Assembly (NCBI RefSeq): GCF_032854445.1
Contig: NC_088305.1
Span: 28,606,628-28,670,627, forward strand
Direction of reading: 5' to 3'
DNA: 64,000 bases
Origin: Liolophura sinensis
Lineage: Eukaryota > Mollusca > Polyplacophora > Chitonida > Chitonidae
Of the stretch, positions 15,701-44,282 are shown one piece after another (position 1 is the stretch's first letter; each line of letters starts with the position of its first letter). The notes beneath the pieces are model-generated. The model searched no databases. It had not been told where the DNA came from and saw nothing but the letters and a program-made list of their open reading frames with translations. The position numbers were made by a program, and so were the translations under genes.

Positions 15701-18700
15701 ACCTTTTTCAAGATTTGTGTACAAGATTTGCTATAGTCTATTTCTTTTAGAAAATCCCCTATATTCTACAATCAGCCATAGTTGCTACCAAAATTACCTT
15801 TAGCCAGTGACATGTAAGAGCATAAGCTGTACACATTGACATGTTGAACCTCCGTATCATTACAAGGAAATTTCAGTTAGAATACTTTTACTATTTCATA
15901 ACGTTAAATTCCATAAGCTTAGTTTCGACACCAAAACCCTATTGCCTCGGGTGACGTCATAATTATTCACAAGCAAGTTGCATGCTGGACAATGGGCGTG
16001 GAGAGTACTTTGTTTTACAATGGCTGAGCCTACAAAAAACCTACAAATCCCTGCGAATCGACTTCATGGTTTTAAATTCCTAGCATCCATCTCTAAATCC
16101 ACAGCGCGGTCGGATCATAAACTGCAAGAGATAAAATAACATTCATTTACTAAGGTTATATCATATTAAGACGTGTAAACAATTTCAAATATGGCTGTGT
16201 CTGTAAAGGGTTTACAGTAAAGTAGTTTACGTGACTGGTGTCGCCCTCCGTCAAAACACGTTAACCTCCGCCCAATATCCAGCATGCCACTGGTTCTGAA
16301 TAATTATGACGTCACCCGGGCAATGGGTTCTTGCCACCGAAACCGAGCTTATGGACTTTAACATCGAATTAGAAAAAGCGCTCTAGCTTTATTTTCCTTA
16401 CAATAGTATAGACTTCAAACATATCCATGTGTAGAGTTTGTGTTGTTGCGGGTGACTGACTAAAGGTAATCTTTGTAGCGAGTATGAATGAGTTTACAGA
16501 GAGCTGAATAGAGGCGACTAAAAGAAATAAACTTTAGTGACAAGGAGAGCGGTGCATGTGCTATAAGGAGAAGGAACGTTAATACATGAATGAAGTCTTA
16601 GCCGCGTTTATTTAAAATCCATTTAAGAAAGCGCACCCCTGCGGTCCCGTAGCAAACTGCACGTAGTAGGCGCGGTCATTGTGCCTGTGCAGTTTGAAAG
16701 CTTAATGGGTAGTTTTTACGCAACTTTGTATCTAAGTTTTTATTGGTTACCTAATCTTTGCTTTGCAGACGGTCCAGTCCTTCTTCGGTGCTATTGGAGG
16801 TCCCATCCTGGGCGTGTTTACTTTAGGCATCCTCTTTCCATGCGCAAATACTTACGTAAGTTTTACTGCTCCATTCTCAGTACACATTCAGCCATGAATT
16901 GGCAACAGCGTTACTATTTCTAAATCATGTTGTTTTTTTATTTTGAGTTTGGGGTTTAGTCTTGCCTGTAACAACATTATATCGATTATACCACGGCAGT
17001 ATCTCAGTGAAAACGGCCAGTCTTTATTGCTTCACTAGAACACCCGATCAATAGACACAATATATGATTCTCCATTCCGTTAGGTGCACTATTTTCTTTT
17101 CACGCTTTATCACGCGAGATCTGTAATATTGGAGCATAGACTTATGTGGGAATTTTCGAGTCACATTGTCTGCCCGGCCGAGAAAAGCCAATAGTGCACC
17201 TTAATGGCATGGCGACACCGAAACACAGCACAGTGACGCCCAAACACAGCATAGTGACAACAGTCCTGTCCACTTATACGGTAATCAAGGAATAATTGTT
17301 AGTGTTCTTTATTGGCTGGTGATGTTTTTCAGGGCGCCTTCGCTGGCCTCATCTCTAGCCTCGGTCTCAGTGTGTGGGTTTTGATTGGCGCTAAGGTGAC
17401 AAAGACACCATCAACTCTACCTAACGACAACAGCACATTTGCCAACATGACCACGTAAGTAGCGTCAGACTCAGAAACTCATGTCGAGTAATACCAAAGA
17501 CTTTAAAAATGGTTCTTGTTGCTGCCTCGCTTGGTGCCCAGCACTGAGAGACTAGAGAAAGGAAACAGGACTGATCGGACCGGTGTAGGCATAATGCAGC
17601 TGCGTGGGGTGTCATATCTGGTTGTATTTGGCATAATACTTGAGTCACGGGGGCACTCGCTCTGCCACAAGAAAACACAGTATATGTACACACACCTAAT
17701 AACTCTTCGTTTTCATGTGACTGAAAAATTGTTAAGTACGACGTCAAACCTCAAGCATACATGCATGTATACATAGATAAATCTTTCTGGGATATGTTGC
17801 TATATTTTCTTTACCAAAGGTCGCGAGTTCAACTTTCCTTTCTTTCTCGATTTTGATTCTCTTCATGAGATTTATAAATCATCCAGTGTGATATACTGAA
17901 GCGATCAAAACTGAACTGAAAGTTATCGAAAGTTAAGTCAGGTTATGAAAAATACCAACCTCATCCTGATAATAATCCACGGTGCTTAAGTTCAGAGTTA
18001 ATACCCGGCTTACATCTTTATAGAGAGCATTTCTCGTCATAAATATTCAGGTCCAAGTTGTGCAGTTTACAGTTCATTTCTGCCTTCTCACGATTTTTGT
18101 GAACAAACTAGTAATGATTTGTATATCAGATATAGACTGTATGGCTAATTTCAAAATGACAATGTTCTTATCTGCCCTCAAATAATTAATCTGTTTATTT
18201 ATTTATTTATTTGACTGGTGTTTTACGCCGTACTCAAGAATATTTCACTTATACGACGGCGGCCAGCATTATGGTAGGTGGAAACCGGGCAAAGCCCGGG
18301 GGAAACCCACGACCATCCGCAGGTTGCTGTCAGACCTTCCCACATACGGCCGGAGAGGAAGCCAGCATGAGCTGGACTTGAACTCACAGCGACCGCATTG
18401 GTGAGAGACTACTGGGTCATTACGCGGCGCTAGCGCGCTAACCAACTGAACCACGGAGACCCTTTAATTAATCTGTTAATTTTTGTTGTCTGAGTGGTGT
18501 TAGAATGTATTCTCTTAGTTTCTATATTCTGTCATGTTCTACATAATAGTCTGTTAGCCTAATATTTATTTTATTGGTGTTTTACGCCGTACTCAAAAAT
18601 AATCACTTATACGACGGCATCAAGCATTATGGTGGGAGGAAACCGGACAGAGCCACGACCATCCGCAGGTTGCTGCCAGACATTTCCACTTACGAGAGGA

Positions 18701-19979
18701 AGCCAGCATGAGCTGGGCTTAAACTCACAGCGACCGCATTGATGAGAGGCTTCTGGGTCATTACGCTGCGCTAGTTAGCCTAATAGAATCTTTGTACTAG
18801 ATTAATAGAATATATGTGTTATATTTAACAGAATTTGCTGTAATAGCAAAAATACTTTCTATTAAATATAACAGATTATTTTTCGAGCATGACAGATATG
18901 TTTTTTTCTCCAGCGTAAGCCCATCGGCCAACACCTTCACCAATCCGCTACTCCCACTGTATCAGCTATCCTACCAGTACTACAGCCTGCTCTCTGTCGT
19001 GGTCTGTATTATTGTTGGCTTACTCGTAAGCGCAGTGACGTGTAAGTATGCAAAGTATGGTACACCGTATTATGTAATAATTCACGAGTAATTACGCTGC
19101 AACCATTTAACATAATAAAAATTTCCTTGATATGTAATATCACTGCGTAACGTAATAAAATTTACTGGTTATGTAATACTGCCGTGTAACCTACAGACAG
19201 ACAAATTGACAAGAAAGTTTTCATTTTTGTTGCCCTTGAACGATTTTGTTTTTGAAGGTCATCAGGGCTGTGCATACACTGTCCTTGAAACTGTTGCTTA
19301 TGATGGAAAGGTATTTATAGTGCATTGCACCTTGTTTAATGATTTTGTCTTAGGTTTTAAACAGCGTCACCCACCGGGATCAGACCTGATATTTCCGTAT
19401 CGCTCTGTACTCAACCCCTGCTTGCCAAAGGGTCATCGGCTTCGAAAGAAGGAGGTGAGAGCTCTATTACAGTTTAGTTTCAGTGATCTGGTTCTATTTC
19501 CATGTCATATCGATCTTCTTGTTGATTTATTTATTTATTTGATTGGCGTTTCACGCCGTACTCAAGAATATTTCACTTATAAGACGGCAGCCAGCATTAT
19601 GGTGGGAGGAAACCGGGCAGAGCCCGGAGGAAACCCACGACCATCCGCACATTGCTGGCAGACCTTCCCACGTACGACTGGAAAGGAAGCCAGTATGAGA
19701 TAGACTTGAACTCACAGCGATCGCTTTGGGGATCTTATTGTCTTTCCAGTTCAATTTTCTTTTATTGAGTAACAGTTGTTTAGGTTTCGTTACTATATAA
19801 AACTTTTAATTAAAATAACTCATATGAATTAGTTCACTTTCATTTTTATCCCTTGTATCTTTTAATGATAGTTGTAAATAACATTTTGATTTTGCTATAC
19901 AGTTAATGTCTTTTGCCAGTTAAACCATCACATTGTTTGATTTCATTTTCAGGAATATCAACTTGATACTGTATCTTAA
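6796..19979 (+). CDS. SLC5A: SLC5-family sodium/solute symporter, 15 exons, frameshift in exon 1
   Basis: Sodium-coupled solute symporter of the plasma membrane; the substrate cannot be told (closest in feel to the SLC5A5/6/8/12 group). Exons: 6796-7144, 8517-8582, 9513-9564, 10121-10188, 10685-10839, 11677-11817, 12099-12228, 13046-13134, 13787-13902, 15247-15314, 16769-16855, 17333-17454, 18914-19041, 19354-19454, 19953-19979 (TAA). All introns are GT-AG and phases agree across every junction, for about 565 codons. Recognisable segments: [20 protein letters not shown] (exon 1), [12 protein letters not shown] (3), [13 protein letters not shown] (5), DPTVRHSIW (6), the sodium-site-like [13 protein letters not shown] across exons 8/9, [16 protein letters not shown] (11) and YQYYSLLS (13). 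Two N-glycosylation sequons lie near residues 473 and 478. Exon 1 is 349 nt, one base too many: the frame must change near 7081-7085 to reach NYIYIPIFY and TSAFE. Confidence 0.9.
7790..7870 (+). repeat. Intronic dispersed repeat family R-E
   Basis: A TGCCTCATGATCC...GGCCTTAGGCGTTGCTCAAGAT...TGCTAG segment. Related copies lie at 8660-8765 (reverse orientation) and 15640-15745. All are in introns of the SLC5 gene, and the last forms the outer edge of the long inverted repeat. Related traces occur near 8930-9010 and 12560-12680. Family not recognised. Confidence 0.5.
8150..8266. promoter_or_regulatory. Two doubled CRE palindromes in SLC5 intron 1
   Basis: TGACGTCATGACGTCA, two overlapping-style full CREB/ATF sites back to back, occurs at 8150-8165 and again at 8251-8266. 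The copies share some flank (ATTGTGACG...) but the DNA between them is unique. Position in the first intron of a transporter fits an enhancer; whether it binds anything is inference. Confidence 0.5.
9135..9365 (+). mobile_element. Small inverted-terminal-repeat element (MITE-like), family M1
   Basis: 231 bp bounded by AATAATCTGTTA and TAACGGATTATT (11 of 12 bases complementary), with an internal palindrome ATTCTGTTATTATAACAGAAT. It has no coding capacity. Related copies are a partial one at 9677-9810 and one at about 18183-18885 that is split by two SINEs. Lies in SLC5 intron 2. Confidence 0.65.
9677..9810 (+). mobile_element. Partial copy of MITE-like family M1
   Basis: Shares AATAATCTGTTAGTGTTAAC, GGGTGATGCTAGGATGTATT, CTGTTATTATAACA and AATGTCCTGTTGGTATAAT with 9135-9365 but lacks the right terminal repeat. 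Confidence 0.55.
10380..10545 (+). mobile_element. Degenerate family-1 SINE fragment
   Basis: CACGTGGGAAGGTCTGTCAG, GGTTTCCTCTCACCATAAGG and the AATCAAATACATAAA tail match the family-1 body. The tRNA head is lost. Located in SLC5 intron 4. Confidence 0.6.
11290..11676 (+). repeat. Minisatellite made from the SLC5 exon 6 splice-acceptor junction
   Basis: About seven units of roughly 53 bp, of the form AATCAGTGATGATTTGACAG AACGCCACAGT, then TTGTTGTTGTATTTCCTCCCA. The real exon begins at 11677 with AATCAGTGGTGATCCGACAG after TATTTCCCTCCCAG, so each unit contains the pyrimidine tract, the acceptor and the first 31 or so exon bases. At least two upstream units keep a full CCAG|AATCAG acceptor (ending at 11334 and 11546). 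The family motif DPTxRHxxW shows the exon is the ancestral part. Confidence 0.85.
13445..13680 (+). mobile_element. Family-1 SINE with tRNA-like head
   Basis: tRNA-like head (TTGGTTAGC box A region; GTGTGAGTTCAAGTTC box B), the body with CCTCCGGCCGTATGTG and CCTCCCACTATAATGCTGG, and tail CACCAATCAAATAAATCAAT followed by (AAAT)n. In SLC5 intron 8. Confidence 0.8.
13955..14335 (+). mobile_element. SINE family 3, full length
   Basis: Head with TAGAGCGCACGCC, body CAAAGACTTTAAAAATGGTA and CAGTATAATGTAACTGGGTG, a microsatellite-like CAGTATATGTACACACAC segment, then CAAAAATTGTTAAACGTTAAACC and (CATT)n. The last part is the same 3' tail as family 2. In SLC5 intron 9. Confidence 0.75.
14796..14960 (-). 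mobile_element. Family-1 SINE, head missing
   Basis: Reverse-strand copy: (TTTA)n, GATTGGTGTTTTACGCCGTA, ATATTTCACTTATAAGACGG, ending in CCCACGTGCGGTCGGAGAGG. The tRNA-like head is absent. In SLC5 intron 9. Confidence 0.8.
15735..16535. repeat. Long imperfect inverted repeat (foldback element) in SLC5 intron 10
   Basis: The left arm, about 15735-16000, is complementary to the right arm, about 16255-16535. Matching stretches include TATTTCTTTTAG with its complement near 16520, AATTACCTTTAG near 15790 with 16465, ATAAGCTTAGTTTCG near 15914 with 16345, and GGGTGACGTCATAATTATTC near 15950 with 16300. Arms of 250-280 bp flank a spacer of about 250 bp. Each arm carries a full CRE octamer. No coding capacity; read as a non-autonomous foldback/MITE. 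Confidence 0.75.
17490..17775 (+). mobile_element. SINE family 3, body and tail
   Basis: ACCAAAGACTTTAAAAATGG, GTTGCTGCCTCGCTTGGTGC, CAGTATATGTACACACACCT and TGAAAAATTGTTAAGTACGA are in the same order as in the copy at 13955. It starts 36 bp after SLC5 exon 12. Confidence 0.75.
18196..18464 (-). mobile_element. Full-length family-1 SINE with 13-bp target-site duplication
   Basis: Reverse orientation: (TTTA)n, TTTTACGCCGTACTCAAGAA, GCCAGCATTATGG, CCATCCGCAGGTTGCTG, GGACTTGAACTCACAGCGAC and CGCGCTAACCAACTGAACCA, which is a tRNA-like head. TAATTAATCTGTT flanks it at 18183-18195 and 18465-18477. Confidence 0.92.
18565..18773 (-). mobile_element. Family-1 SINE with 12-bp target-site duplication
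   Basis: Same family and orientation as its neighbour, with small internal deletions. GTTAGCCTAATA flanks it at 18553-18564 and 18774-18785. The tRNA head is partly truncated. Confidence 0.9.
19522..19735 (-). mobile_element. Family-1 SINE in the last SLC5 intron
   Basis: TTTATTTGATTGGCGTTTCA, ATATTTCACTTATAAGACGG, GGTGGGAGGAAACCGGGCAG, through ACTTGAACTCACAGCGATCG. Flanks GATCTTCTTGT and GATCTTATTGT look like a slightly decayed target-site duplication. Confidence 0.85.
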
Positions 19980-24393: not shown

Positions 24394-27300
24394 ATGGCTG
24401 GCAAAACGAAAGTCGTCAAAACGTTTCACATAAATGAATTGCACATATGCCTGTCCGTCCTCAGCGTAAGTGTGGCGTTTCTCTTCCTACAATGGCTGTC
24501 ACTCGAGGCAGAGGTGCGTTCGTTCAGGTCCGAAATGGACCAACTATCAGGGCAGAGAAGTCCAAAGATGTACCACCGGCAGGGTAAGCAGCAGGATCCG
24601 GGTGTAGCATCCGGACAGAGAATCAGAGACGGTGGGTGGGGAGAGGAGCCCCGGTTTGTCGGTCACGATTGGGCTCGTCCCGGGGGTGGGGCACATCCCG
24701 ATCAACCTTTTAGGGGAATGGGGCCAGCTCCCCAAGGAGTACCGTTCAATAGGGCAGGACATCCTCTTCAGCCGGGCATGCCACTGGGAGGACACGGCCC
24801 TGACACGGTTTCAGGATATAATCAACATGCACCAGGTATGACGCTATTTATTTATTTACTTATTTGGCATTTTAACATGTGGGAAAGGTTGTCAGTATAT
24901 TGGCAAAGGTCGGTGGTTTATTGCCGGATACTCCGTTTTCCTTCACCCATAAAACTGATCGCCATTGTATAAGTGAAAAATTCTTGAGTATGGCGTTAAG
25001 CTAAGGTCAAATAAATAAGTACATAAATAAATAAATAAGTAAGTAAATAAATAAAAAATAAATAATAAATATTGGGAATGTCACACAAGATTGTTGAGTG
25101 TTTTACTTACTCCACGACAGCCTTGTTTATAGGTGGAACAAATCTATATCTGGTGTACAGTAATCCCATCCAAGAGCTCATCTGTATAAATTTATCGGCT
25201 TTGAAGAGCTACTTCAGTGTCAAGATCTATATGTATTAAAAGCAAGGCAAAATGATAAGGATCGCGATAGCCTGAATTACTTTCATAAGTTGTAAAAAAA
25301 ATTTGCATTGTATTAAAACCGCTGTTCAAGAAAACTTGGCGTTACCCATAGCCGACGTATAGATATATATGACGTCGTACTGTAAAACGCGCAAGACGTC
25401 ATTCCAGTATAAATGCCTTATTCGACGTCTCATCTGTCTTATCCGTCGACACATAAGAAATATTATTACATCACATCAGGAAATTTTTGCACAGGTGGTA
25501 AAGTTCTTTAAAAAATGCGGAAGTTCAGTGGTTTTCCTCTGGCAATTGTCCTGCCTCCATCCATGACAGTGACAGCCATTGCAGAAATGAACTAATTATT
25601 GAATATGGCCTTAAACCCCAAAGAAATCAATATAACTTTTTTTTTTTACACAGTCAACCGCGCATAACTTGGAGGATGTATGAACAAGTTAAAGTTGCCA
25701 AATAGATTGAGCCGACTTGATTACATTGACATGTCAACCTAGACACATCCAACTGCCATTCTGAATCAAATAATGTGCTATATTCTATAATCAACTTGTC
25801 CTATGTTTAATTCTCACAATGCAATACAGTTTAACGTATTCATCAGTGCATATCTTAACGACTGGCCAGATTTCAACAGATGTAATATTTTGGTAACATT
25901 TCCATCCTCCTGACAGTACAGATTTTAACTAGTGGCCAGGTTTCAAGAAATGCAATTTTCGTCCTCACTTTAGCTCTCCGCACAAAGTGATGCCTTCCAC
26001 ATTATTGAGAATACCACTTGTGATACGTGTGGTCCCATACCTGTACCAACGCCAACTGCTTTGTTGTGATTTAAGGCCTATTTGTCTTTAGGCGAATGGG
26101 GTACTCCCGTGATTACTGACCCTGGCATGATGGATGACCATGACAGACAGCTTTACGAGAAGGGCTGGGAGAAGCATTCCTTCAACTCTTTCGCCAGCGA
26201 CTTGATTTCCGTAAAACGCCAACTCTGGGATGTGGCCGGACCAGCGTAAGTGGAAAAAGAGAGAGACGTAAACAAAAAGTAAATAAAGACGTACAGAACA
26301 TCGACGACAGTGTGATAGCTGGCTAATGGTCACATGCAAGCGGTGAAATTCGGCCTCTTTCCAGTTAACCTCAGTCAGGGTTTTATTCTAACTGTTCATG
26401 TAAATGCATAAATAGCAAGTTACACGAATTGTCACTGTATGTGACAATTCCTTGTCCAGCCAATAGTTTTACGCAAGAAACCTGACATTTATAATGCAAG
26501 CAACGATAACTTTTATAAGATCTTTTTCAGTTAGCTTTTATTCGTTTAAAGACAGATCGAATTTACTTACTTTTACATCGCTGTTGTGAAGCTGTTGTAA
26601 AGATACAGCATGTACAATCGTGATATAATCACCAAATGAGTCAAATTAAATAATTGTCCTGATAAGGTGCCGAAAGAGGGCGTTGTCCTACCGCACTGAT
26701 CTACCGGATGTGGGCGTGGTCATCATTTTCCACAACGAGGCTTGGAGCACTCTGCTCCGCACTGTTCACAGCGTTATTGACAGAACACCATCCAATCTGC
26801 TCAAAGAGATAATCTTAGTGGATGACTTTTCCTCCGAAGGTTAGATCTCACTCATGCATATTATTAGAGTGATATTTCTGATCCAACACAACTCTTCAAC
26901 GATTACACTTGAATATTAAACCCTCCAAAAAATGTCATATCGTGTGTGCTTGTGAGGCGTGTACGTTTGAATGCGATGTATTAACGGCAGTGTATATTTG
27001 TAGTTTTTTTGGCGTTTTTCACTTGAGCAACGTTTTATACCTTTTAATTTCAGTACATTACATATGTGTATATAACTGTTTGTATATATGTTTTCCTGCT
27101 TTTTTGTATTGTTTGGATGAGGAACCCTTGTGACGATATAAGCGTGGCTTTGAGAGATCACTGTAAAAAGTTAAATGCATGACATACTGATGCATACATT
27201 TCCAGAGTTTTTGAAAGATAAACTTGACGAGTACGTTGCCTCGATAGACAAAGTCCGGATCATCCGGGCACCTCAACGTCAAGGTTTAATCCGTGCTCGT

Positions 27301-30300
27301 CTACTGGGTTTTGAAGCCGTCACTGCTAAGGTGGCCATGTTTCTGGACTCTCACTGTGAATGTACTGATGGTAAGATTTTATATTCATTTCAAATTACGA
27401 AAACAGAGGACGGAAAAGCTCCTTCATCCCACTAGTTATAATAATATATGAATATATGAATATTATGTTAAAGTTAATGTGAAAAATAGCCAAAAAATGA
27501 ACAATAAACATCAGAGGAAAGGTTTCAGCAAAACCGTATCTGAAACAAGCTTTGCTTATATTTTTGGACTGAATAAAACGTTGTCAGATCTAACATTCCC
27601 AGGTCGACATTATGGGTCATACCCAGTTCTTTCTACTTTTTTTATGGACTTTGGGGTCAGCTCTTGTAAGGTTAACTCGTGCAAGATTTGGGAAAACAAA
27701 ATCTAGGTTGTGACGTCATGGATACGAAAAGTGGTCAAAGAAGACCCACAACATACCAGTATGCGTGGTTGTTGCACCGAGATGTACCCATTTCTGTTTG
27801 TTTGTGCCACTTACCGCCATTTATTACAATAACAAAATGGCATGCATCTACTTGTCCTTTCATGTGCACTGAGGCAGTTAGTGTAACGAACCGTTGGAAA
27901 AATGCACACATATGCCCTGGAAGTAAACTAATTACGTAGGGTGCACCCACACCATGGTGGTAAAACAAAAGTCATAGTTCCTATGAATGTGTTTATTTAT
28001 TTGATTTGCGTGTTACGCTGTTCTCAAGAATATTTCTCTTATACGACGGCGGCCAGCATTATGGTGGGAGGAAACCGGCCTGATTTCGGGTCGAATCCAC
28101 GATCATCTGCAGGTTGCTGTCAGATCGGAGAAGAAGCCAGCATGAGCTGCTTAAACTCATTGGGTAGTTTCTATGAATGATAGGTGCAAATACGTTTGTC
28201 AAGCAATACGTCATTTATCGGCTAATTCAGGTTGGCTTGAACCCTTACTGGACCGCATCGCCCGCGACGAGAAGACCGTCGCCGTCCCCGTCGCCGACCG
28301 GATCAAATCGGACACCATGGAATTCGTGCCAGGAAATGGAAGTGAGATGTTCTGTGGGTTTGAGTGGGACATGACATTTAATTGGTTTAAATTACCGGAG
28401 CGCGAGCGTCAGCGGCGGAAGGATATTTTAGACCCGATTCGGTAAGCTGACCTGAACCTGGGCATCAAGACATACATCCGTATTCGAGCCGTCAACCAAA
28501 AGTGAAGATATTCGCCCACTGTTTTTGTACACAAGCTAAAAAAAGCAACAGGTCCCAAAATGATAGCTTTGGAGTCAAAGTAGTGCCCATAATCTTCTAG
28601 AAGAAATAAATGCGTTTACGCTGATTTGTTGAGATAAAAGCATGCATTGGATAAGTCGTGAAGGACACAGTAATTTGCCAAACATAACTGTCCACAATTT
28701 GCCCAGAGACGTTGAAAGAAATATAATCCATCTTGAAAGGATTGTAAGGAGAAAGGCTAGCCGGAGGACACATTCCATTTTGGCGTGAAACTGTAGATGG
28801 ACATAACAAGATCGCCTTTCCTAGCCACTTTCACAATTTCAGGAGACAGCTAACAGATGGTACACTTCATATTAAACAGTGTCTTTTGAAGGATGACAAC
28901 AGCGATAATTCCGGCTTCGGGATCGAAACATCCTGACATGAGTAGAAGTGTACGAAATGGGTCTGCACTTGATGTACATATATCTACCCTTATCTTGTAG
29001 GATGTATCATTAGCTCTATTTATATGAAAGACCACAGCTTGGAGCATGAAAATAGAGCAGCTGCGATAGTGTGGAATGAGTGTACTGACGGCTATAACCT
29101 GTGAAATCCGGCTTCTTGTCAGTTTACCTTGGTTACCTTGGTTACCTTGGTTATTCGATACCTGTTTGTGTAAATGCTTAGGTAGCAGGAACGTAAACGA
29201 TTCATAGCGCCATGACTTAAGAAGAATTATGTAATGTATGCAGTGGTGTTATTAGATACCTAGCTTTGCTGATTAGGCTGTTTTTCATGAGGTTTACCCT
29301 ATGGCTGGCTGAGGGCGATACTCCGGTTTCCTTCACCCACAAATCTTCAACCGTCGATCGTAAAAGAGAAATCGTGAATTCATGAGTATACGGCGCTAAA
29401 CACCAATCAAATAAATGACTACATCGATGATTTAGTTCAGCAATTGAGGGAAATGGGATCGAGAAAAGGGAAATCACGTTATACGTTTCCTTCTCTGAGC
29501 AGGTCACCGACTTTCCTGGGCTGTTGTTTCGCCATAAGTGTCGACTTCTTCAACACTCTGGGTAAATACGACACCGGCTTGAACATTTGGGGAGGTGAAC
29601 ATCTAGAGTTATCCTTTAAGGTAAACACCTAAAGTTATCCTTCAAGGTAAACCCCTAAAGTTATCCTTCAAGGTAAACCCCTAAAAGTATCCTTCACGGT
29701 AAACACCTAAATTTATCTTTTAAGGTAAACAGCTAAAGTTATCCTTTTAGGTAAGCAGCTAAAGTTATACTTCATTGTAAACACCTAAAATTATTCTTCA
29801 TGCTATAACACCTAAAGTTATCCTTTAAGGTAAGCAGCTAAAATTATCCTTCATAGTAAACACCCCATCCACCGTCCTATAAGTGAATCGTCTCATGTAC
29901 GGCGGTGAACACCAGTGGAATATATAAATCATGATAAACACCTGAAGTTACTATTATAGATCAGGACATCTGACTAAAAACCTATTTTACTGACCATCTT
30001 TGAGGATGAACACCTCAAGTTGTCCTCCAAGGTCGACAGTTTTACTCACAGAGCATATGGGAGTGGGAGTAAACACAGAGAATTATGCTTCAAGGTTAAG
30101 GCTTTGACTGGAAACCAATTTTTCTGACTGGAGACCAAATGTAGTGAACATTTAGGGGCAGGTGAAGACCTAGCATTGTCCTTTAGGTTCAGGATTTGTT
30201 CCTGACTAAAGACAGCTTTGACGAAACAGCTTAATGGCTGATACCCCTAATACTGGTTTGTATTATTAGCGTACATGGAGGTCATATAGGTAGTCTATCG

Positions 30301-33300
30301 GTGTAGAGTGCTTGTTTGAAGATCAATACGCCGAATTCGACAAGCGGGATGAAAATAGGAAAAATCTGTTTCATAAGCCACGTTCTGACGGTGCGATTTG
30401 TCGATTCTACAATTGCATGGAATAACGCATGATATATTTTCATTGGACTTGTGGAATGTGAAGGGTCGATTGGAAGATTACACCGTGTCAATGCGCTTTT
30501 ACAAATGACGTCGCTTCGTAAATTGCACTGGTCATATAGCTCGACTGCGGCCTAATGACAGGTGGCTGAATAGGCGCGGTGGTTTCATCCTGTAATCGGT
30601 TTCCTTCACAGTTAAATATGATTAGCGTTGTCTTTAATTGAATAATTCAACACAAATATAGATAATTGTATAAAAGTACCAATGTATTAAGCGAATATTT
30701 CAATAAATAAAAAATCAAACAAATTAAACCCATTATTCACGCATGATAATCCACATAAGTATTATATACTTGTAGACATATTTAGGCACTTTTATTGCAT
30801 TGTATGAACGTAAAACTGACTTTACCTCAGACATGGATGTGCGGTGGTACACTGGAGATCATTCCGTGCTCGCACGTCGGCCATCTTTTCCGCACGAAAT
30901 TGCCGTTCTCCTTTCAAGGCCGCGAGGTTGGCGAGACAGTTCGCGAGAACAACGCCCGTATTGTGGAGGTCTGGCTGAACAACTACAAACACTTCTTTTA
31001 CGACAGAATATTTTATGAAAAGGTAAGGGAATTTTACGTTGGTAGATATCTCTGATATCGAAAAATATCTAAGAGAAATAGTTGTAAAGTAGTTTGGATT
31101 GTATTGTTTTATGCAGAGAAGCTGATTATGGCGCCGCACACACCATTCCCACAAGATTCAATAAAGAATCATTAATATACAGATAGGAAAATTCTCTATA
31201 GGAGGCGATGTTTTAAGGTTCTTTATAGAGAAACGTAAAAAGGGCTCCTAGATTATTATTTATGAGGGGATGACCAAGGCAACGGGAACAAGAATTGTGG
31301 TTAAGATTCGCACACCTTACTCTCGATGGTCGGCAGTGGACTCACGCCTAAGCTGCTAATTCCTGCATCGTATCACGCTGTGTGAACAAAGTGTTAATGT
31401 AGTTTTCACGTATTGCAGTAGAAAAGCACAAGCAATCCAGCTTGGAGCCGAGTGGGCCCAAGTGACTTGATGGGAAATGGTCCCCCATTAGTTTAGGTGC
31501 GTATGGTATCATGCAACTATTATAGATCACTTTAAGGTAATCGATATGACTTTCCTGATTTACAGTTCAGTCGGTGACATATACACTGGAAGTGTTCAGT
31601 GTGACTAACATTCTCTAAACACCTACTGCTGTTACAGGTAGATGTAGGGGACGTAACTGAGAGAGAAAATATCCGTGAAAACTTGAAGTGTAAATCTTTT
31701 GACTGGTACCTTGAGAACGTGTACCCCGAGTTATACGTACCCTACGACAGTAAAGCTACTGGCATGGTAGGTCCAAAGTGCAACAAACATTTGTTGATAA
31801 AATTGCAAAGGATGCTAATTGAGTATTTAGATATATTTAGATATATTTAGACTTTATTAGTAACTGATGCGACATCTAACCAAAGAAAACACAGTGAATA
31901 GGCAGTGTCTCTTTATGTAAACGTTTTTAATCAGTTTGTGTATTAACTGCTGTCCGTCATTAGTACCAGACAAATCTCCAGCATGACTTAAAACTGCAGC
32001 TGTTCAAGCGAGGGCTGGATCCAAACCTAACACAGCCGACTGGGAGCGATACTAAGTTAGCTAGAGCCAGTTAATGTACCCATTTTAGTGAATTGTACTA
32101 CCTGTGTTAATTTTACACTAAAATCCCTTTACTTTGAGTAACTGGTTATTCTGCGAGAGGTCCTTTCTGATACAAGTGTGAGTGTATAATTTTCGTCATC
32201 TGTTTGCAGATAAAGATGTCGAGCGGAGGAAAAGACTTTTGTATGCAGTCCACGCAGTCTTGGTTCCTCAATGGTAACGTCTTTCAGACGTTCCAACCTT
32301 GTAACAAGGATGTGCCCCCTCAGGTATTCCATGACACCTGGGGCATTTTAATTAATTATTTCATTGCAAATTACCAAGGACGTGTTATTCTGAGTTACTT
32401 TTTGGATTGTTGTCTTTTACGCCATATTCAAGTTTTTCGTATAAACTTGTATATCAAAGTTGAATATCAGCTGAAGCATGAAACTGACATGAATAATTTC
32501 TACCTAATTTCTGGATGAAATTAGAAGTAAGGGATGTTTGGAAGTTAAGAGTGACACCACAGCGAGATATACATGTATATGGATTAGGGCTTATTTTCAA
32601 TGAATACAAATACAAATAAAGAATGATAATATTCATTGTTTATTTATTTGATTGGTGTTTTACGTCGTAGTATTCGTTTTTTAAACCGGCATATGATTAT
32701 ATTTCACCTTCTATATCTTTTACGCCTTTGCGTAAATGATTTTGCGCTTATATTGTTGTCTCTAGCACTGGACATTAACTCGTGAGAATCAGATCAGGCG
32801 TGACGAGGGCTGTCTCACGGTGGACCGGAAGGACAACAAGGTCATCATCACCGGATGTGAGGAGTTGGCCGGGAAAGGCACGTGGACATATCACCAGGTG
32901 GGTGATTAACAGAAATGGCAGTCATGGTTTTGATTTGTCGATAAACCCTGTCGGTTTTAGTCATCTTATAAACTAGCACAATATGCGATGTGGAAGTAAT
33001 TTTGATTCGGATAAAACATTCCTCGCGTCTTTCCAACGTCACTGAAAGCTGTTGACCTTTTTTCTTTACATGAATCTGTTATAATTTGGTGGTTTGTGTT
33101 GAGCGTTGTTGTGGGAATTGACCTATGGTGATTACTCACATAGAGTGTCCATTTTTGTTGACGGCTGGTATACGAATACCTGTTTTGAACGCCTAGACTC
33201 CCGACAATATCATCACAGAAAAGTTACATGGCTCTGACAAACTGCCTAGTCCCAAAATAAAAGCTACTCAGTTGCACGCCAATATACCTGTACAGTCTGA

Positions 33301-33902
33301 TTATGAAAGTCCGCTTTCGGTTTTTACTCTTCGGACTCACCATTATCGCTTCATTGATGTTTGGGAACAATCTAGGATTGAAAAACAATCTCTATTGCCC
33401 ATGCATGAACCTTAATGTCTTAGGTGCAGTGGTCAATAAAAAGACACGCTCGCTGTGAGTTCAAGTCCAGCTCATGCTGGCTAACTCTCCGGCCGTACGG
33501 GAAAGGTCTGCCAGCAACCTGCTGATGGTCGTGGATTTCCACCGGGCTGGGCCCGGTTTCCTCCCACCATTCTGCTGACCGCCATCGTATTAGTGAAATA
33601 TCCAATCAAATAAATAAATAAAAAGACACGCGAAAAACTGTTTTCTGTTGCGTACACCCCCACCACCTCCTGCCCACGTCTGACAGAATGGCAAGCCATG
33701 AGCGTGCGGTTTATTTGATAGGTATATCTGCTTTTATTATTATTTTCAGAACAACACAATTTCCCATGACGAGACAGGGAAGTGTTTGACGTTTCAATTG
33801 GGATCGGAATTTGCCCTTGTGGACAAATGTTCCGATAACAGCAATCAAGTGTGGCAATGGGAGCGACGGGTGCTGAAACTTAAACCAGAAATCAACGACT
33901 GA
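24394..33902 (+). CDS. GALNT: Polypeptide N-acetylgalactosaminyltransferase, copy B, complete, 11 exons
   Basis: Starts mucin-type O-glycosylation in the Golgi (UDP-GalNAc to Ser/Thr). Exons: 24394-24835, 26092-26245, 26667-26839, 27206-27370, 28231-28441, 29503-29620, 30831-31022, 31638-31766, 32210-32323, 32766-32897, 33750-33902 (TGA); all GT-AG, phases consistent, 660 codons, normal for the family. Layout: short cytosolic tail, signal anchor at about 16-35, Gly/Pro-rich stem to about 150, then GT-A catalytic domain with [20 protein letters not shown] and the metal-binding DSH at 304-306 ([10 protein letters not shown]), [10 protein letters not shown] near 411, and PCSHVGH near 433-439. 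A ricin-B lectin domain follows at about 526-655. Odd point: the usual AGGLF before the second half of the domain reads LGCCF in exon 6. The ATG is the first in frame and begins the anchor. Exons 7-11 duplicate copy A. Confidence 0.93.
24845..25070 (+). mobile_element. Degenerate family-1 SINE remnant with A-rich tail
   Basis: CGGATACTCCGTTTTCCTTCACCCATAA, TATAAGTGAAAAATTCTTGA and GTATGGCGTTAAGC resemble the family-1 3' half. The tail is a long imperfect (AAAT)n. In GALNT copy B intron 1, just after exon 1. Confidence 0.5.
26286..26440 (+). repeat. R-B repeat copy in GALNT copy B intron 2
   Basis: GACGACAGTGTGATAGCTGG, AATGGTCACATGC, GGTGAAATTCGGCC and CTAACTGTTCATGTAAATGC. It begins about 40 bp after exon 2. 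Confidence 0.65.
28000..28165 (-). mobile_element. Family-1 SINE with flanking repeat
   Basis: TTTATTTGATTTGCGTGTTA, TATACGACGGCGGCCAGCAT, CATCTGCAGGTTGCTGTCAG, GAAGCCAGCATGAGCTG. Flanked by GTTCCTATGAATG and GTTTCTATGAATG. It lies about 65 bp before GALNT copy B exon 5. Confidence 0.85.
29060..29230 (+). repeat. R-B repeat copy with a short TTACCTTGG tandem
   Basis: GTGAAATCCGGCTTCTTGTC and AGTTTACC, followed by three TTACCTTGG-type units, then TGTGTAAATGCTTAGGTAGC. In GALNT copy B intron 5. Confidence 0.6.
29595..29875 (+). repeat. 26-bp minisatellite made from the GALNT exon 6 splice-donor junction
   Basis: The exon ends ATCTAGAGTTATCCTTTAAG and the donor is GTAAAC. Directly after it come about nine units of the form AAACACCTAAAGTTATCCTT CAAGGT, so exon end and donor are repeated together. 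Several units keep a usable AAG|GTAA(A/G)C donor. More decayed, longer-period copies appear near 30000-30190 (for example GGGGCAGGTGAAGACCTAGC). Reading past the true donor meets a TAA after three codons. Confidence 0.88.
33433..33632 (+). mobile_element. Family-1 SINE, orthologous to the copy at 3096-3290
   Basis: Same truncated body at the same place in the last GALNT intron, ending (AAAT)n before AAAAGACACGCG. Present in both copies, so inserted before the duplication. Confidence 0.85.
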
Positions 33903-35914
33903 ACTTAGGTTTTCTTCCAATCTTCCGAGTTTTATGTCGACCTTGGAGCCGAGAGTTGTGTGACAAATAAGTTGTCTTGTCGTAGTTAGTTTTTAGAAAT
34001 TGTAGGAAAATGTAGTTTTTTGTTAATCAATCATCTAGTTTAGATTTTGAAAACAAATATACATAACATACATAAAATGTACATATAAAGAGTTATTGCA
34101 AAGTTTCTACAATACATATAGGACATCTGCTGCAATTTGAGTTTAGGAGTCTTTTTTTCTTAATCCTCCGAACACTGAGGATAAAACTAACCGAGACTTT
34201 CAAACACATATTTCTAACCGCTTTTTTTTTGTCATCGTATTTGATGTTAACTGCCGAATATGAAAGGGGGGCAACAGTCCATTTCCTTTCACACTGTTTA
34301 GACATAGTCGCCTGATGTTCTACTCATTATTACTTCCTGTGAATACCGTGAGACAAGATCAGGTCAAAGGTCTGTGTGTTCTCAGGCGTGTTATAAAGGA
34401 GATGTAATTTTGACTGGTGATAAACGAAATACTGAAGAATTTTTATACCCCTAACTCAGACGAATCGCTTCATAGGATCGTGATTTTGTCAGATTGTATG
34501 TATATATATATGATGTATAAGAAAGTATAACTTCGTGTGCGGGATATAACTATTGTCATTTCAGGAATAGAACTATTTGTCCGGCAGGTGCAATATTAGT
34601 TTTTAGTGGATACATAGACACAGGCGTGAGAATGTGTCCCGCCTTACACGATAATCCTTACCGGATTTCTCCGGTTGCCGGATTAACCAGATTGCCAGAG
34701 TCTCCCTATGTCCACTATATGGATAGTTATGACTACGTGTCTGATGTACAACTCAAGTTGTTTACCATGTGTAGTTTTAGGTTTTGTTGGATATACATAC
34801 AGAGGTGACGATGTGTTCAAAGCAAAAATCCCCCTAAAATAATAAACGTGAAATTTAGCAGTGGAAAAATAATGTTTTTATGTGTAGAAGAAGCCTTTGT
34901 GCTTGGAGTGTGTAGATAATAAGTACCACTGTTCAGACTGCGTAAGGCCATAGAAACACGGTAAAGCAGCGTACTCCACAAACTAAGACGGTCACGTTTA
35001 GTCGATTGCAGAATGTTGTCTCAAAGAAAGCATCAGCAGTGTCCATATGCATTTTGTCATTCATCTGTGAACGGACTAGAAGTTCAAGGAGCCCAGTATT
35101 TCCCGGTATTTGTCTTTCAATGAAGTATTTCCTATTTCGGCCATCGAAGATGATATATAATCCACTACGTCAAGTACCTACACAAGATATTCAATTCATA
35201 TCGCAACAAGGTTAATCAAACACCTAACTCTGTTCAAGTTAAGTACCCTGCCCTGCCCTGCTGTACGCTGTATTGTGTCAACTTTAATTTACCCTTAGCG
35301 AAATATAACCTTTGGCTTATATTAGAAGGCTGTCAGTTTTTGGTGACTGGCTTAGTGATGTGGGTTATTGGCTAGGTGTTTTATTTCTTGAGACGTTTAT
35401 ATTTGCCACAAGAGACATCGGGCTAAAATTCACAACGCCATTGTTTCTTTAATAACCTCGCGTGCGGAACTACTCCAGTTCGAATTCATCCGTAATGGCT
35501 TATGAACTCGGTGGACTTCCCTTCTTCAGAAAAGGTTAATTGAATCCCCCCCCCCCCCCCCCCCGCCACCTCTCAAGGGAGAGACGGCTAAGTTGACACC
35601 ACACGGGCCTCGTTTATAGAGTGTTGACGCGGACTATTATTGACCGGTTTGAACCTAATACATAGGCTGTCAGGCCAGCATAGGGTATGAGGGACATGTA
35701 CCTTTCGTGACTCAACCCAAGAACTAAGCTGACACGGTCTCGTGTTCGAATCCAGCTCTTGCAGAGTGTCTTTGTAGCTTTCGTGTTACTTTATAACATC
35801 GGCTTTCTGGTTTGTAGGACCATTTAAGCCAACTGAATTTCGATGATGAACACTTGTCCTTCGCCAGCAGACCCGAGGCGGCAAGGTTGTATGTCTCAGG
35901 CAGGGTAGTTTACG

Positions 35915-35958
<44 letters not shown>

Positions 35959-36439
35959 TAATCAATATGTTGGTCTTTCTACTGCTACATACCTGATCTC
36001 AATTTACAGAGAAAATGCCACAAAAACAAACGTTCTCGGCGAAGAACCTGGAAATGTTTGAGAAATGGGGTCGTATGCTTTAGTGGTAAAATTACCGCAA
36101 TTGATGAACAATGTAATTCCTGATGCATGGTATACGCGATTAAGATACTCTTCACCTTTGAACATAGGCGCCAGGGGGTATGTAATTTGCTACTATTTAA
36201 GCATTTACAGTGAACAGTTGGAATAAAACACTGAGGTAAACTGACAAGAAGCCGAATTTTATCGGTAACGTATTGGCCAGATATAACACTGTCGTCGCTG
36301 CTTTGGTTTTACACTGTTCAATAATATTGTAACGCTGCGAGGTCAATCAGTTGCTTCACAATCATAACACTTCGATAACAGCTCAGAACAGCCTGTGTCT
36401 AGTCACAATTTCAATGACGGAAATCAATGCCTATACAAT
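33903..36439. other. 3' flank of GALNT copy B, no gene seen
   Basis: Duplicate of 3574-5989 with the same poly-C (about 35549-35562), (CAAT)n (about 35915-35960) and R-B repeat (36160-36340, minus). Nothing coding is supported. Confidence 0.6.
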
Positions 36440-37135
36440 ACTACATCTACCCCGACCGCACATATCTACCCCGGCTGCACACATCAACTCGGCGGCACAC
36501 ATCTACTCTGCTGCACACATCTACTCAGCTGCACACATCTACTCGGGGGCACACGTCTACTCCAGCTGCACACATATACTCGGTTGCACACATCTACTCT
36601 GCTGCACACATATACTCGGTTGCACACATCTACTCTGCTGCACACATCTACTCGGTTGCACACATCTACTCTGCTGCACACATCTACTCAGCTGCACACA
36701 TCTACCCCGGCTGTACACATCTACTCGGCTGCACACATCTACTCGGCTGCACACCTCTACTGTGCTGCACATCTTTACCCCGGCTAAATCTACTCGGCTG
36801 CACACATCTACCCCGCTTCACACATCAATCAGGACTGCACACATCTACACCGGCTGCACATATCTATCCCGACTGCACACATCTACCCCTCTGCACACAT
36901 CTGCCTTGCTACACACATCTACTCGGTTGCAAACATCAAACCCGGTTGCACACATCTTCCCCGGTTGCACACATCTGCTCTTCTGCTCACATCTGCCCCT
37001 GCTGCACATATCTATTCGGGCTGCACACCTCTACCCCGACTGCACACATCTACTCGGCGGCACACATCTACTCGGTTGCATACATCTACCCCAGCTGCAC
37101 ACATCTACCCCGACTGCACACATCTACTCGGCTAG
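36440..37135 (+). repeat. 18/19-bp minisatellite, array B
   Basis: Same CTGCACACATCTAC(TCGG/CCCCGA) units as array A, about 38 copies, longer by roughly 140 bp and with a different unit order. Followed by three CGGACCCTC units at 37151-37180. The long open frames through it are a by-product of the repeat. Confidence 0.93.
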
Positions 37136-37180
37136 ACTTTAGGCCACTTCGGACCCTCCGGACCCTCCGGACCCTCCGGT

Positions 37181-40544: not shown

Positions 40545-43500
40545 ATGAGCATCTGGAAATCAGGTATAAGAAATCATTTTCATGTTATAATGCAAATTGT
40601 ACTCACGTGTTAATTCATTGTAGATATGTTAGGCTACCCTGATGTGAAAGGATTTGTAACACATCCACATCGCAACACCTGAACACGCACAACCCCAACA
40701 GTAGATCGCAGTTCACAGGTTACGTGTGACAATTTGTCAGCTATCACACTGTCATCTCTGCTCTGGTTTTACTCTCTATGCCCAAGTTTTTATAATATGA
40801 GGTATTAGTCAAATGATACAAATCACGTGCATTTGAATAGTTACTGCGGCGGAATTACTCTCTCATCAATGCCGTCGCTGTGAGTTCAAGTTCAGCTCAT
40901 GTTGACTTCCTCTCCAACCGTGCGTGGGAAGGTCTGGCAACAACCTGCGGATAGTCGTGGGTTTCCCCCGGGTTCTGTCTGGTTTCCTCCCACCAGATGC
41001 TGGCCACCGTCGCATAATGGAAATATTCTTGAGTACGGTTCAAAACACCAAATAAATAATTAAATAAATAAATAAATAAATAAATAAATGAATGAATAAA
41101 GTTTGAGGCGTTGATTAATGTTATACACAGCGACACTCTCATTCTGAATACAATTTATATTCATGATGGTTTTTAAATTAACTTAAAAAGGGGAAATATA
41201 CTTCAACTGACAAAGACGATTTGACCTTTGAGAGGAAAAATTGAAACATTGAAGTTATTGACGTCAATAAACCGGGCTTTATGCTCCCTGCACTGGCCAT
41301 GAGATCATAAACTGTATTAACTCACATTGTTCTTTGCTCAGTAAAATTTGCTGGCATTTTGAGCTATGCAGTGCATTATCCTATAGACGAGCAGTATTCT
41401 TTTAGTTGTGAATTTATATTTAGTTGTGTAGTTACATATATAAGGGGCCGAAAAGTACAACATCGAACAGTTTGTGTAAATAGTAGCTTATATGTCCCCC
41501 AGCTATATGGCTTAAGCAGAAGTAGAAACCAAAATTTCTAAGGGACCAAATTCTTGTAGATTTCTAGCATCCTCCAGAAGAGTTCTGTGCAATTATTCCT
41601 ATTTATTTCTATTTATTTATGTATTACTTACTTACAGTTATTATGTTGTAAAGCACCTTATTAAAACTGTTTTTGTTGATTTTAAATAATATTAAAACTG
41701 AGAAGTTACAATCAGCAAACTGTCAGTAGGTAACATCGGGTAGTTTGGTAAGCAGGTACATGAAATAAAACGTAACACTCGGACATAAGCCGTAAACAAT
41801 AAATCAAGCTGCATTGGTTGCTGAAAAGAAGTTCCAAATGAACTGAGCACTATTTGTAAGACTGACATCTTTTCGTTTATTGAAATTGTTATTCTGATTA
41901 TATGTAAAACAAAACCCCCCAAAAAATTAATAAATGGAAAAAATAAAAAGGAGAAAAGAAAGAAAACAAGATAGTTTTTACATAAACAAACTGTGGGTAT
42001 GACGGGTGATAATTGTTAACGTGTTCTCATGATGTACTCTTTCCTGCAAATAGAGTGTCTTCATAATAATTGTTACCTTACAAGTTGACGTTATTATATT
42101 TACTTATAAAGTATGCGGGGCCTCCGCGGCTCAGTTGGCTAGCGCGCTAGCGCGTAATGACCCAGGAACCTCTCGCCAATGCGGTCGGTGTGAGTTTAAG
42201 TCCAACTCATGTTGACTTCCTCTCCGGCCGTATGTGAGAAGGTCTGCCAGCAACCTGCGGATGGTCGTGGGTTTCCCCCGGGTTCTATCTGGTTTCCTCC
42301 CACCATAATGCTGGCTGCCGTCGTAAGTGAAGTGAAATATTCTTGAGTAAGGCGTAAAACACCAATAAATAAATAAATAAATAAATATAAAGTATGCTAA
42401 TACCAGAGCAGTGACGGAAGTTGGATGAGCATTAAATGGTCACACAAACAGGTGAAATACGGTCTCTTGTCAGTTTACCTCAGATAGGATTTATTATAAC
42501 TGTTGCTTAAATAGTAACAAATCACACGCCCCAAAACATCATGGTTTAAGCAGAATTAGGTAGGAAAATGCAGTGATGTTAATTGCAAATTAATTACACG
42601 ACTAGTGTTACTAAAAATATTGTGTTGTCATCTGCGATTCACATTCAACATACAATGACATTAAAACAATAAGACAATGTAGTCGTGTACAGTTGTTTCT
42701 TAAGGAATTTGTATGATGATTTGTCTTGAAAATGGGTGTATCAGTGCGATAAGACCACAAAGCTCGTTGTCTTTGGGCAAAGTCATAATATATAGCCGTC
42801 GACATGTAGAATAAATTCTAGTAGCATTTAACATTCAATTTTTCAGATGCTAAGCGCAAAATGGCAGAGCAGTGTCATCAGCAGCTAATATGCGGACACA
42901 TTCAATCGTTAGAAGAGAAAATAACGCTGTGCAAAGAGAAAATATCTTTGCCTCTGATGGCAAGGATGATAGCCAACTGCTCCATTTTGATTGGCGGGTA
43001 TGGCAATCTGCAGCACTGCAGAAGTTTACGTCATATCTGGTCCTTGGTCGAAGAAGCGACAAGCCTTCGCAGAACAGTACAGAGGGGAAAAGATCCAGAC
43101 TTTGACATGGTTCTTCTATACTTCGATTGGGCTTTCAGTTTTTATCTGTGTTTGGGAACTCTGGTAGACACGTTTAAAAGGCAGATTTACCAGCCCCTAC
43201 TGGAGAAGTACCAAGAGCAAAGGGGACTGGGAAAAGCCAAAGTGGACAGATTGACACTGTCCTCACGACGGAGCCAGTTGTCTCCCTTTTCTTCAGATAG
43301 CGGGTTCAGTGCGACGTCATCTGGGCAACTTGTGACAGACATGGATACAAATATGACGAGCGTTCCGAGCGGATATGACATCACTCAACAACGACCTTGT
43401 GCAGCGATTGGCCAGTTGTATGGGGAATACGAAGAATTAAAAGAACTGTACGATTTTAAGGAAATCGAACAGACGTTGGAACGTATACAGTCGCTATTGT

Positions 43501-44282
43501 CAAGTCTTGACATACTGTTAAGTAGCGGAGACATCGACGAAGATTTGTTCAGCCCTGACAGTTTTGCGACAATATCTCATTTCATGATAAAGCAGCCTGT
43601 TTTAAATGTGCTGAGGTTGTTTCCGGATGTCCTTATTAAACTGGAAAAAGCCGCTTGGTTAGCAAATAAATGGGTACGGTTGAACGAATCCAAGACAAAC
43701 AGTGTTATGGAGAAACTAGAAAAATTGACAAAAGTTGAGAGAGCTTTGTCAACACGTGTGAATAAAGTCAAGACAGAGGTTAACGTTATGGAAGAACGGT
43801 TGGAGAAGCAGGTTTTGGAGTTGAACTCTTATCTGGTTAGAGAACAAAAAGCCGGAGAGATGAAAATTGCCTTATATGAACTAGACACCAAGATAGCTTT
43901 GTTGAAAACAGAGTTGGGTAATGTAAGACATGAAAAAAAGCAAATCAAGCACTACATATTTCTTGCCAGCCGAAAGAACCAATCAGCATCGCTGAAACAA
44001 CTTGAGAATCACTATCGTCGAAATCAGTTACAGCGCTATTCATTGGCTGTTCGCATATCGTCTTTGTCCTACCAGCGCGCTATAATGCAGGACGATCTAA
44101 AGACTGAACTCAATTTAAACCCATCTTACGTGGCTTTTACAAACTCATCACAGGAGATTTGTGACGAATTGGAAACTTCATTGAATGCAAAGTGTAGAGA
44201 AGAGACCTTGTTACAAAGAGCGCTTGTATTTATAAGGGAAGATCAGCAATCGCTGTTGTCCAACATGAAGGCGAAACCATAA
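40545..44282 (+). CDS. Unrecognised coiled-coil protein, two exons
   Basis: The main exon 42847-44282 has a long open frame. It is preceded by a good acceptor (ATTTTTCAG at 42846) and the frame stays open to that acceptor, so coding probably begins upstream. A fitting first exon is 40545-40563: ATG with six codons and one base, then donor GTATAAG. Joining gives MSIWKSDAKRKM and about 484 residues. The first 110 residues are helical, with Cys/Trp/Tyr-rich stretches (SLRHIWSLVEE, FDWAFSFYLCLGTLVD). A Ser-rich linker at about 145-175 (SRRSQLSPFSSDSGFSATSS) looks like a phosphorylation region, and residues about 285-400 form a Lys/Glu-rich coiled coil (MEKLEKLTKVERAL, EERLEKQVLELNSYL). I cannot name the family. 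If the first exon is wrong, translation may start at 42861. Confidence 0.8.
40865..41095 (+). mobile_element. Family-1 SINE in the intron of the coiled-coil gene
   Basis: GTCGCTGTGAGTTCAAGTTC (box B), GGAAGGTCTGGCAACAACCT, GGTTTCCTCCCACCAGATGC, TATTCTTGAGTACGGTTC and (AAAT)n. The 5' head is truncated. An R-B fragment precedes it at 40710-40790. Confidence 0.8.
42117..42385 (+). mobile_element. Full-length family-1 SINE with 12-bp target-site duplication
   Basis: The cleanest copy in the window. Head GGGGCCTCCGCGGCTCAGTT GGCTAGCGC (box A region), GGTGTGAGTTTAAGTCC (box B), the body, CGTAAAACACCAATAAAT and the tail. TATAAAGTATGC flanks it at 42105-42116 and 42386-42397. In the intron of the coiled-coil gene, next to an R-B copy at 42407-42545. 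Confidence 0.95.

What the first reader, a model, noticed from the sequence alone, without database searches (positions are those of the whole stretch)
29595..30190. A splice donor and the end of its exon turned into a minisatellite (GALNT exon 6)
Right after exon 6, a 26-bp unit containing the last exon bases and the GTAA donor repeats about nine times, with older, longer-period copies further on. Several repeated donors look functional. The first inter-donor segment brings a TAA after three codons, so donor slippage would give a protein without the second half of the catalytic domain and without the lectin domain.
Basis: partly seen in the sequence, partly recalled or inferred. Interest (0 to 1): 0.75.

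Follow-up and report, generated by a model that had tools for sequence, protein, structure and literature searches.

The report
Tandemly repeated exon end ("mirage") in GALNT
The last 26 bases of one exon of a sugar-transferase gene, with the splice site that ends it, have been copied about ten times in a row into the neighbouring intron; this is a kind of repeat already known from lancelet genes as a "mirage", where it has been reported not to disturb normal splicing.

Summary
Ten 26-bp units (29595-29855, one after a 1-nt insertion) start with the last 26 coding bases of GALNT exon 6 and run into intron 6. Four degenerate copies follow at 29934, 30006, 30069 and 30162. The exon is the source, because its peptide matches solved GALNTs. 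Six of ten unit ends keep AG|GT. The two best-scoring donors (29750, 29829) lie downstream and score above the native donor at 29620. Any downstream donor brings TAA after VNT (424 aa, predicted NMD target).

Splice-signal columns are no better conserved among intronic copies than other columns, so nothing shows selection to keep them. The structure matches "mirages", minisatellite-like duplications of exon-intron boundaries described in lancelet Adh, globin, troponin C and PGBD5 genes, where splicing is reported or thought to be normal. A minisatellite that really supplies donors is on record for human IFI6.

Best explanation: a mirage seeded by slippage between AGGT repeats, mostly passive, with leaky donor use possible. 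The AG|GT design also means that a retained segment begins with GT and ends with AG and might be spliced out later. No RNA, second allele or organism identity could be obtained.

The parts
24394..33902 (+). GALNT gene (polypeptide N-acetylgalactosaminyltransferase), 11 coding exons; the joined frame was read to 33890 (657 aa), the same frame runs three more codons to a stop that ends at 33902
   Evidence: exon joins with GT..AG borders and an open 657-aa frame; stop from the ORF list; Pfam Glycos_transf_2, Glyco_transf_7C, Ricin_B_lectin; best solved relative, from exons 5-7, is GALNT9 6e4r/6e4q, E 6.8e-58
29503..29620 (+). exon 6, 118 nt, ends ...[11 protein letters not shown] in phase 0
29595..29620 (+). 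unit 1: exonic source copy GTGAACATCTAGAGTTATCCTTTAAG, preceded by AG (AG|GTGAAC)
   Evidence: peptide conserved in the five solved GALNT alignments shown
29621..29855 (+). units 2-10, intronic copies; the unit at 29804 follows a 1-nt insertion
29856..29864 (+). partial 11th unit (GTAAACACC)
29621..29622 (+). native donor GT (AAG|GTAAAC), 3.38 bits, U1 duplex -6.8 kcal/mol
29751..29752 (+). downstream donor-like GT (TAG|GTAAGC), 5.73 bits, U1 duplex -9.4 kcal/mol
29830..29831 (+). strongest donor-like GT of exon 6 + intron 6 (AAG|GTAAGC), 7.19 bits, U1 duplex -9.5 kcal/mol
29630..29632 (+). TAA met after VNT if any downstream donor is used
29934..29959 (+). older degenerate copy (19 of 26 matches to unit 2)
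30006..30031 (+). older degenerate copy (21 of 26), still reads EHLKLSSK
30069..30094 (+). older degenerate copy (21 of 26)
30145..30187 (+). older copy (30162-30187, 18 of 26) with, directly upstream, a 13-nt match to the exon 6 bases that precede the unit; together score 23 against exon 6 + 26 nt, maximum 19 in 300 shuffles of the rest of intron 6. The upstream match on its own is not significant (score 11, reached in 57 of 300 shuffles)
29621..30830 (+). intron 6 (1210 nt)

Best explanation
This is a 'mirage': a minisatellite made of the 3' end of a coding exon plus its splice donor. Shown: the exonic unit is the source, units are tandem, the repeat begins at an AGGT in the exon (29593), and the next AGGT is the exon-intron junction 26 bp on (29619). 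Inferred: slippage or unequal exchange between those two AGGTRAAC stretches duplicated the 26 bp between them, and repeated events lengthened the array into the intron, with the oldest copies decaying distally. Inferred: the copies are not kept by selection. The spliceosome mostly uses the first donor at 29620, perhaps helped by the exon/array G+C contrast (0.47 against 0.32), with an unknown amount of leaky use of later donors whose products should be removed by NMD.
For: Tandem units and older copies far above shuffles. Exonic peptide conserved in the solved GALNTs shown, so exon to intron is the direction. AGGT seed at the left edge. Neighbouring intronic units differ least next to the exon (0.04, 0.12) and most at the far end (0.35). 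Donor columns drift like the rest. Exons 7-11 of the near-identical upstream copy differ at 7 of 708 sites against 104 of 2759 in introns, without gaps, 5 silent and 2 replacement codons; this points to coding constraint on the 3' part of the gene, while exon 6 of that copy is not in the window. Same architecture in lancelet Adh3, globin, TnC and PGBD5 genes, with splicing reported (Adh, globin, TnC) or thought (PGBD5) to be normal (passages read, PMC3087553; PMC3902484).
Against: Two downstream sites score clearly better as donors than the native one, so clean use of the first donor is not guaranteed. The base frequencies were recalled, human-like, and not trained on this species. No RNA and no second allele were seen. 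The donor-column test has only nine units and little power. The host was not identified, so the lancelet parallel may be across phyla.
Confidence: 0.78

Rival explanations
1. Donor-multiplying minisatellite with function: several repeated donors are really used, and retained segments (26, 52, 104, 130 or 209 nt) bring the TAA, so a share of transcripts goes to NMD or makes a 424-aa product; array length would tune GALNT output.
For: Five downstream AG|GT sites score equal to (three) or above (two) the native donor. Exon 6's native donor lacks G at +5, which 8 of the gene's 10 donors have. The stop lies 581-764 nt before the last junction in all five simulated isoforms. Precedent: human IFI6, three mRNAs with repeat units used as donors (passage in PMC4526556, citing Turri 1995, which is not held).
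Against: No preferential conservation of donor columns. Lancelet mirages with AG/GT repeats are reported to splice normally. In IFI6 the extra units keep the frame, as far as I recall; here every extension meets the same stop.
Confidence: 0.13
2. Self-erasing array: because most units end in AG and the next begins with GT, a segment kept by use of a downstream AG|GT donor is itself a GT...AG intron and can be removed by a second splicing step (or the sites act as recursive splice sites), restoring the normal SFK|TWMC junction. This would explain how such arrays are tolerated at exon ends.
For: Array AGs at 29724 and 29750 score 2.25 and 2.10, above 5 of the 10 real acceptors of the gene; those at 29620, 29646, 29672 and 29829 score -0.24 to -0.13, above 1 of 10. 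Ten donor-acceptor pairs 78-209 nt apart exist within the array at a cut-off of 60 nt. Precedent for splicing across tandem AGGT units: 24-bp exonic AGGT repeats in two fission yeast genes, and ATP2A1/ATP2A2, as told in PMC4974935 (passages).
Against: Acceptor scores use a recalled matrix; A before AG is disfavoured; four of six array AGs are weaker than 9 of the 10 real ones. No RNA evidence.
Confidence: 0.07
3. Assembly artefact: the repeat number or the array itself was created by misassembly.
For: Positions 1-6536 repeat 30414-37137 at 92-96% in three main pieces (82% in the fourth, which holds a minisatellite), which may be two haplotypes joined; repeats are a usual place for errors.
Against: Units 2-10 differ from one another by 4-35% (mean 20%), which assembly copying would not produce; four dispersed older copies lie beyond the array.
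Confidence: 0.02

Closest known systems
Lancelet (amphioxus) 'mirages': Adh3, globins BflGb6 and BflGb9, troponin C, PGBD5
   Same: Minisatellite-like tandem duplication of an exon-intron boundary, many units with AG/GT signals; unit lengths of 10-72 bp given for Adh3 include the 26 bp here. BflGb9 duplicates the 3' boundary of an exon, as here.
   Different: Gene (GALNT) and perhaps species; globin units are longer (150-160 bp); here ten short units plus decayed older copies; no RNA or allele data here. Whether this window is a lancelet was not established.
Human IFI6 (6-16, G1P3) minisatellite
   Same: A minisatellite whose repeat units offer splice donors.
   Different: There downstream donors are really used and give three mRNAs. 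Here use is unknown and would bring a stop.
[quoted passage not shown] ATP2A1; fission yeast SPOG_01682 and SOCG_00815)
   Same: Tandem copies carrying AG|GT, so that segments between copies start with GT and end with AG.
   Different: There a new intron is made inside an exon; here the copies lie in an existing intron and need add no intron to the mature message.

Membership tests
Mirage (minisatellite over an exon-intron boundary) | tandem units that span or start from an exon-intron boundary | tested here: met
   first unit is the last 26 nt of exon 6, array continues into intron 6
Mirage (minisatellite over an exon-intron boundary) | many but not all units carry AG/GT | tested here: met
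   AG|GT at 6 of 10 unit ends: 29620, 29646, 29672, 29724, 29750, 29829; not at 29698, 29776, 29803, 29855
Mirage (minisatellite over an exon-intron boundary) | length instability between haplotypes or cells | not testable with these tools
   own assembly could not be searched (no answer); the corresponding part of the upstream gene copy lies before position 1
Mirage (minisatellite over an exon-intron boundary) | normal mRNA in spite of the array | not testable with these tools
   no transcript data
Mirage (minisatellite over an exon-intron boundary) | host is a lancelet (the cases named in the two papers seen) | not tested
   organism not given; not identified here (one literature search for a dispersed repeat, 0 papers)
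IFI6-type donor-supplying minisatellite | transcripts that use repeat units as donors | not testable with these tools
   only site scores available
Intron gain by AGGT tandem duplication | a new intron at the duplicated site, absent from relatives | not tested
   no animal relatives compared at the DNA level; one literature search for GALNT intron positions gave nothing usable

The most novel reading that the evidence does not exclude
The array is a length-variable unproductive-splicing dial with a built-in repair: stronger donors at the far end compete with the weak native donor and divert part of the GALNT message to decay, while the AG|GT layout lets a second splicing step remove the retained segment, so that the balance depends on repeat number and differs between individuals or cells.
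Probability: 0.06. Interest if true: 0.7.

Novelty: new member of a known kind. Interest (0 to 1): 0.36.

Why it matters
It adds a clear short-unit example of an exon end turned into a minisatellite, in a conserved enzyme gene, with an unusual twist: the best donor sites by score sit in the middle and at the far end of the array. That makes it a natural test of why the first of many near-identical donors is chosen (if it is), and of whether AG|GT arrays are tolerated because retained pieces can be spliced out again. Such arrays are also a proposed source of new introns.

Tried and rejected
Duplicate exon 6: the part of exon 6 upstream of the unit (29504-29594) has no significant copy of its own in the rest of intron 6 (score 11; 57 of 300 shuffles reach it), so there is no sign of an old whole-exon duplication. 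Its best match, 13 nt, does lie directly upstream of the 30162 copy, but alone it is chance level.

RNA hairpins hiding the donors: AAGG of a donor can pair with CCTT of the same unit, but mean unpaired probability at the array sites (0.26-0.55, nine sites) overlaps that of nine other donors of the gene (0.17-0.68), so nothing special.

Selection on the donors: tested and not found. Changes against the exonic unit by codon position (first 20, second 8, third 24) were not interpreted, because shared changes are counted many times.

Other minisatellites of the window as mirages: repeats of the 55-bp family start near 54206, about 230 nt after a weak fibrinogen-like frame that ends at 53977, and I saw no splice site there; the 52-bp array at 11292 was only looked at by eye, no exon model was made. 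The arrays at 5990, 22080, 36443, 47267 and 56668 were not examined for exon borders beyond the ORF lists, so I cannot say that this is the only mirage in the window.

Organism: a literature search for three stretches of the dispersed repeat found 0 papers. GALNT intron positions: one search, two papers listed, one passage read, not usable.

An off-by-one in exon borders made the first coding comparison of the two gene copies run out of frame; it was redone with right borders, and only that result is used.

Full report
What is there. The window holds a complete GALNT gene on the plus strand. Joining eleven exons with GT..AG borders gives an open frame of 657 aa from 24394 to 33890, three codons short of its stop. 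Pfam finds Glycos_transf_2 (216-391), Glyco_transf_7C (381-440) and Ricin_B_lectin (529-645). The piece from exons 5-7 matches 16 distinct solved sequences at E up to 0.001, the best being GALNT9 6e4r and 6e4q (E 6.8e-58); the five alignments shown, of those 16, read GGENLE[LI]SF[KR] where this gene has [10 protein letters not shown]. Exon 6 ends with that peptide at 29620, in phase 0.

The array. Tandem Repeats Finder gives 29593-29864, period 26, 10.4 copies. The unit in the exon is GTGAACATCTAGAGTTATCCTTTAAG, and nine intronic units follow, one after a 1-nt insertion. Four separate copies lie at 29934, 30006, 30069 and 30162. In 29500-30300, 14 sites match unit 2 at 17 or more of 26 positions; 200 dinucleotide shuffles gave at most 2. 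In 29865-30300 alone there are 4 sites, and at most 1 in 500 shuffles. Aligned to exon 6 plus 26 nt, the rest of intron 6 gives score 23 at 30145-30185 (at most 19 in 300 shuffles); the part of that match upstream of the unit is not significant alone (score 11, reached in 57 of 300 shuffles).

Direction and age. The exonic unit encodes a peptide conserved in the family, so the exon is the source. Intronic units next to the exon are most alike (adjacent differences 0.04 and 0.12), those at the far end least (0.35); the mean pairwise difference of units 2-10 is 0.20. Eight of nine intronic units read K where the exon reads the first E (the unit at 29804 reads a stop there), as do the older copies at 29934 and 30069, while those at 30006 and 30162 still have GAA. 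The array proper may thus come from one altered unit; that is inference. Left of 29593 there is no repeat, and the repeat starts with AGGT. AGGTGAAC at 29593 and AGGTAAAC at 29619 stand 26 bp apart. Direct repeats of 5-10 bp around a longer stretch are one published way to start a minisatellite (Haber and Louis, as told in PMC3389668, passages read). That this happened here is inference.

Splice signals. Of ten unit ends, six keep AG|GT: 29620, 29646, 29672, 29724, 29750 and 29829. With a recalled human-type matrix the native donor scores 3.38 bits and -6.8 kcal/mol with U1; three downstream sites score the same; 29750 scores 5.73 and -9.4; 29829 scores 7.19 and -9.5; the gene's ten donors run from 0.30 to 7.26 bits. 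In the window 79 of 4067 plus-strand GT sites reach 3.38 bits and four reach 7.18. So several units look usable, and the two best lie downstream. Any downstream donor gives the same 424-aa frame ending in SFKVNT, with the stop 581-764 nt before the last junction in the five cases simulated, which by the usual rule marks the message for NMD. Among units 2-10, however, donor columns changed in 12 of 81 cells and other columns in 16 of 153 (permutation P of as few changes or fewer = 0.81). Nothing shows that the extra donors are kept by selection, though nine units give little power.

An added point. Where a unit ends in AG and the next starts with GT, a segment retained by a downstream donor is itself a GT...AG stretch. 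Array AGs at 29724 and 29750 score above 5 of the gene's 10 real acceptors, the other four above 1 of 10. A second splicing step could therefore restore the normal message. This is a hypothesis; splicing across tandem AGGT units is on record in fission yeasts and vertebrate ATP2A genes (PMC4974935, passages read).

Literature. Tandem repeats over exon-intron boundaries are known in lancelets as mirages: Adh3 (units of 10-72 bp) and globins BflGb6 and BflGb9, with many but not all units carrying AG/GT, length differences between haplotypes of BflGb6, somatic instability at Adh3, and RT-PCR results that suggest no interference with regular splicing (PMC3087553, passages read). Lancelet troponin C and PGBD5 are added in PMC3902484 (passage read). 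In human IFI6 repeat units do serve as donors for three mRNAs (PMC4526556, passage read; the original paper is not held). Human paralogs in segmental duplications also show boundary repeats tied to new introns (PMC2812944, passages read). The finding is a new member of this kind.

Surroundings. Positions 1-6536 repeat 30414-37137 in four main pieces at 95.9, 94.6, 92.2 and 81.7% identity, the last holding an 18-bp minisatellite. Exons 7-11 differ at 7 of 708 sites, introns (with the part of intron 6 present) at 104 of 2759 (Fisher P 5.8e-5), with 5 silent and 2 replacement codons. This is either a tandem gene copy or a second haplotype placed in line. The array of that copy would lie just before the window. 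I could not reach it: the genome search did not answer in eight tries.

Verdict. Observation confirmed; interpretation partly supported. Most likely a mirage that is mostly passive; leaky donor use is possible and untested.

Noticed in passing
1-6536 and 30414-37137: A block of 6.5-6.7 kb at 92-96% identity outside its minisatellite, with the 3' part of a second GALNT copy (exons 7-11) at the window start; fewer changes in exons than introns. Tandem gene duplication or a haplotype assembled in line.
   Followed up: partly
29503-29620 (exon 6): PTMAGGLF of the five solved relatives shown reads PTFLGCCF here, and their GGEN reads GGEH. From recall these positions line the UDP-GalNAc pocket, so activity or donor choice may be changed.
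   Followed up: no
5990-6542 and 36443-37133: An 18-bp minisatellite in both copies of the duplicated block, 553 against 691 bp, so array length has changed since the copies parted.
   Followed up: no
3106-3260, 13444-13680, 14795-14960, 18185-18462, 19519-19732, 33447-33601, 40860-41074, 42129-42387, 49336-49470: A dispersed repeat of about 150-270 bp on both strands, several copies next to an AAAT microsatellite, SINE-like.
   Followed up: partly
42825-44282: A 485-aa open frame (stop to stop) without a Pfam match at E 0.01.
   Followed up: no
53466-53977: Frames with a weak fibrinogen C-terminal match (E 0.0089, below the Pfam cut-off), split between two frames; perhaps a decayed fibrinogen-like gene, followed by a 55-bp minisatellite.
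   Followed up: partly
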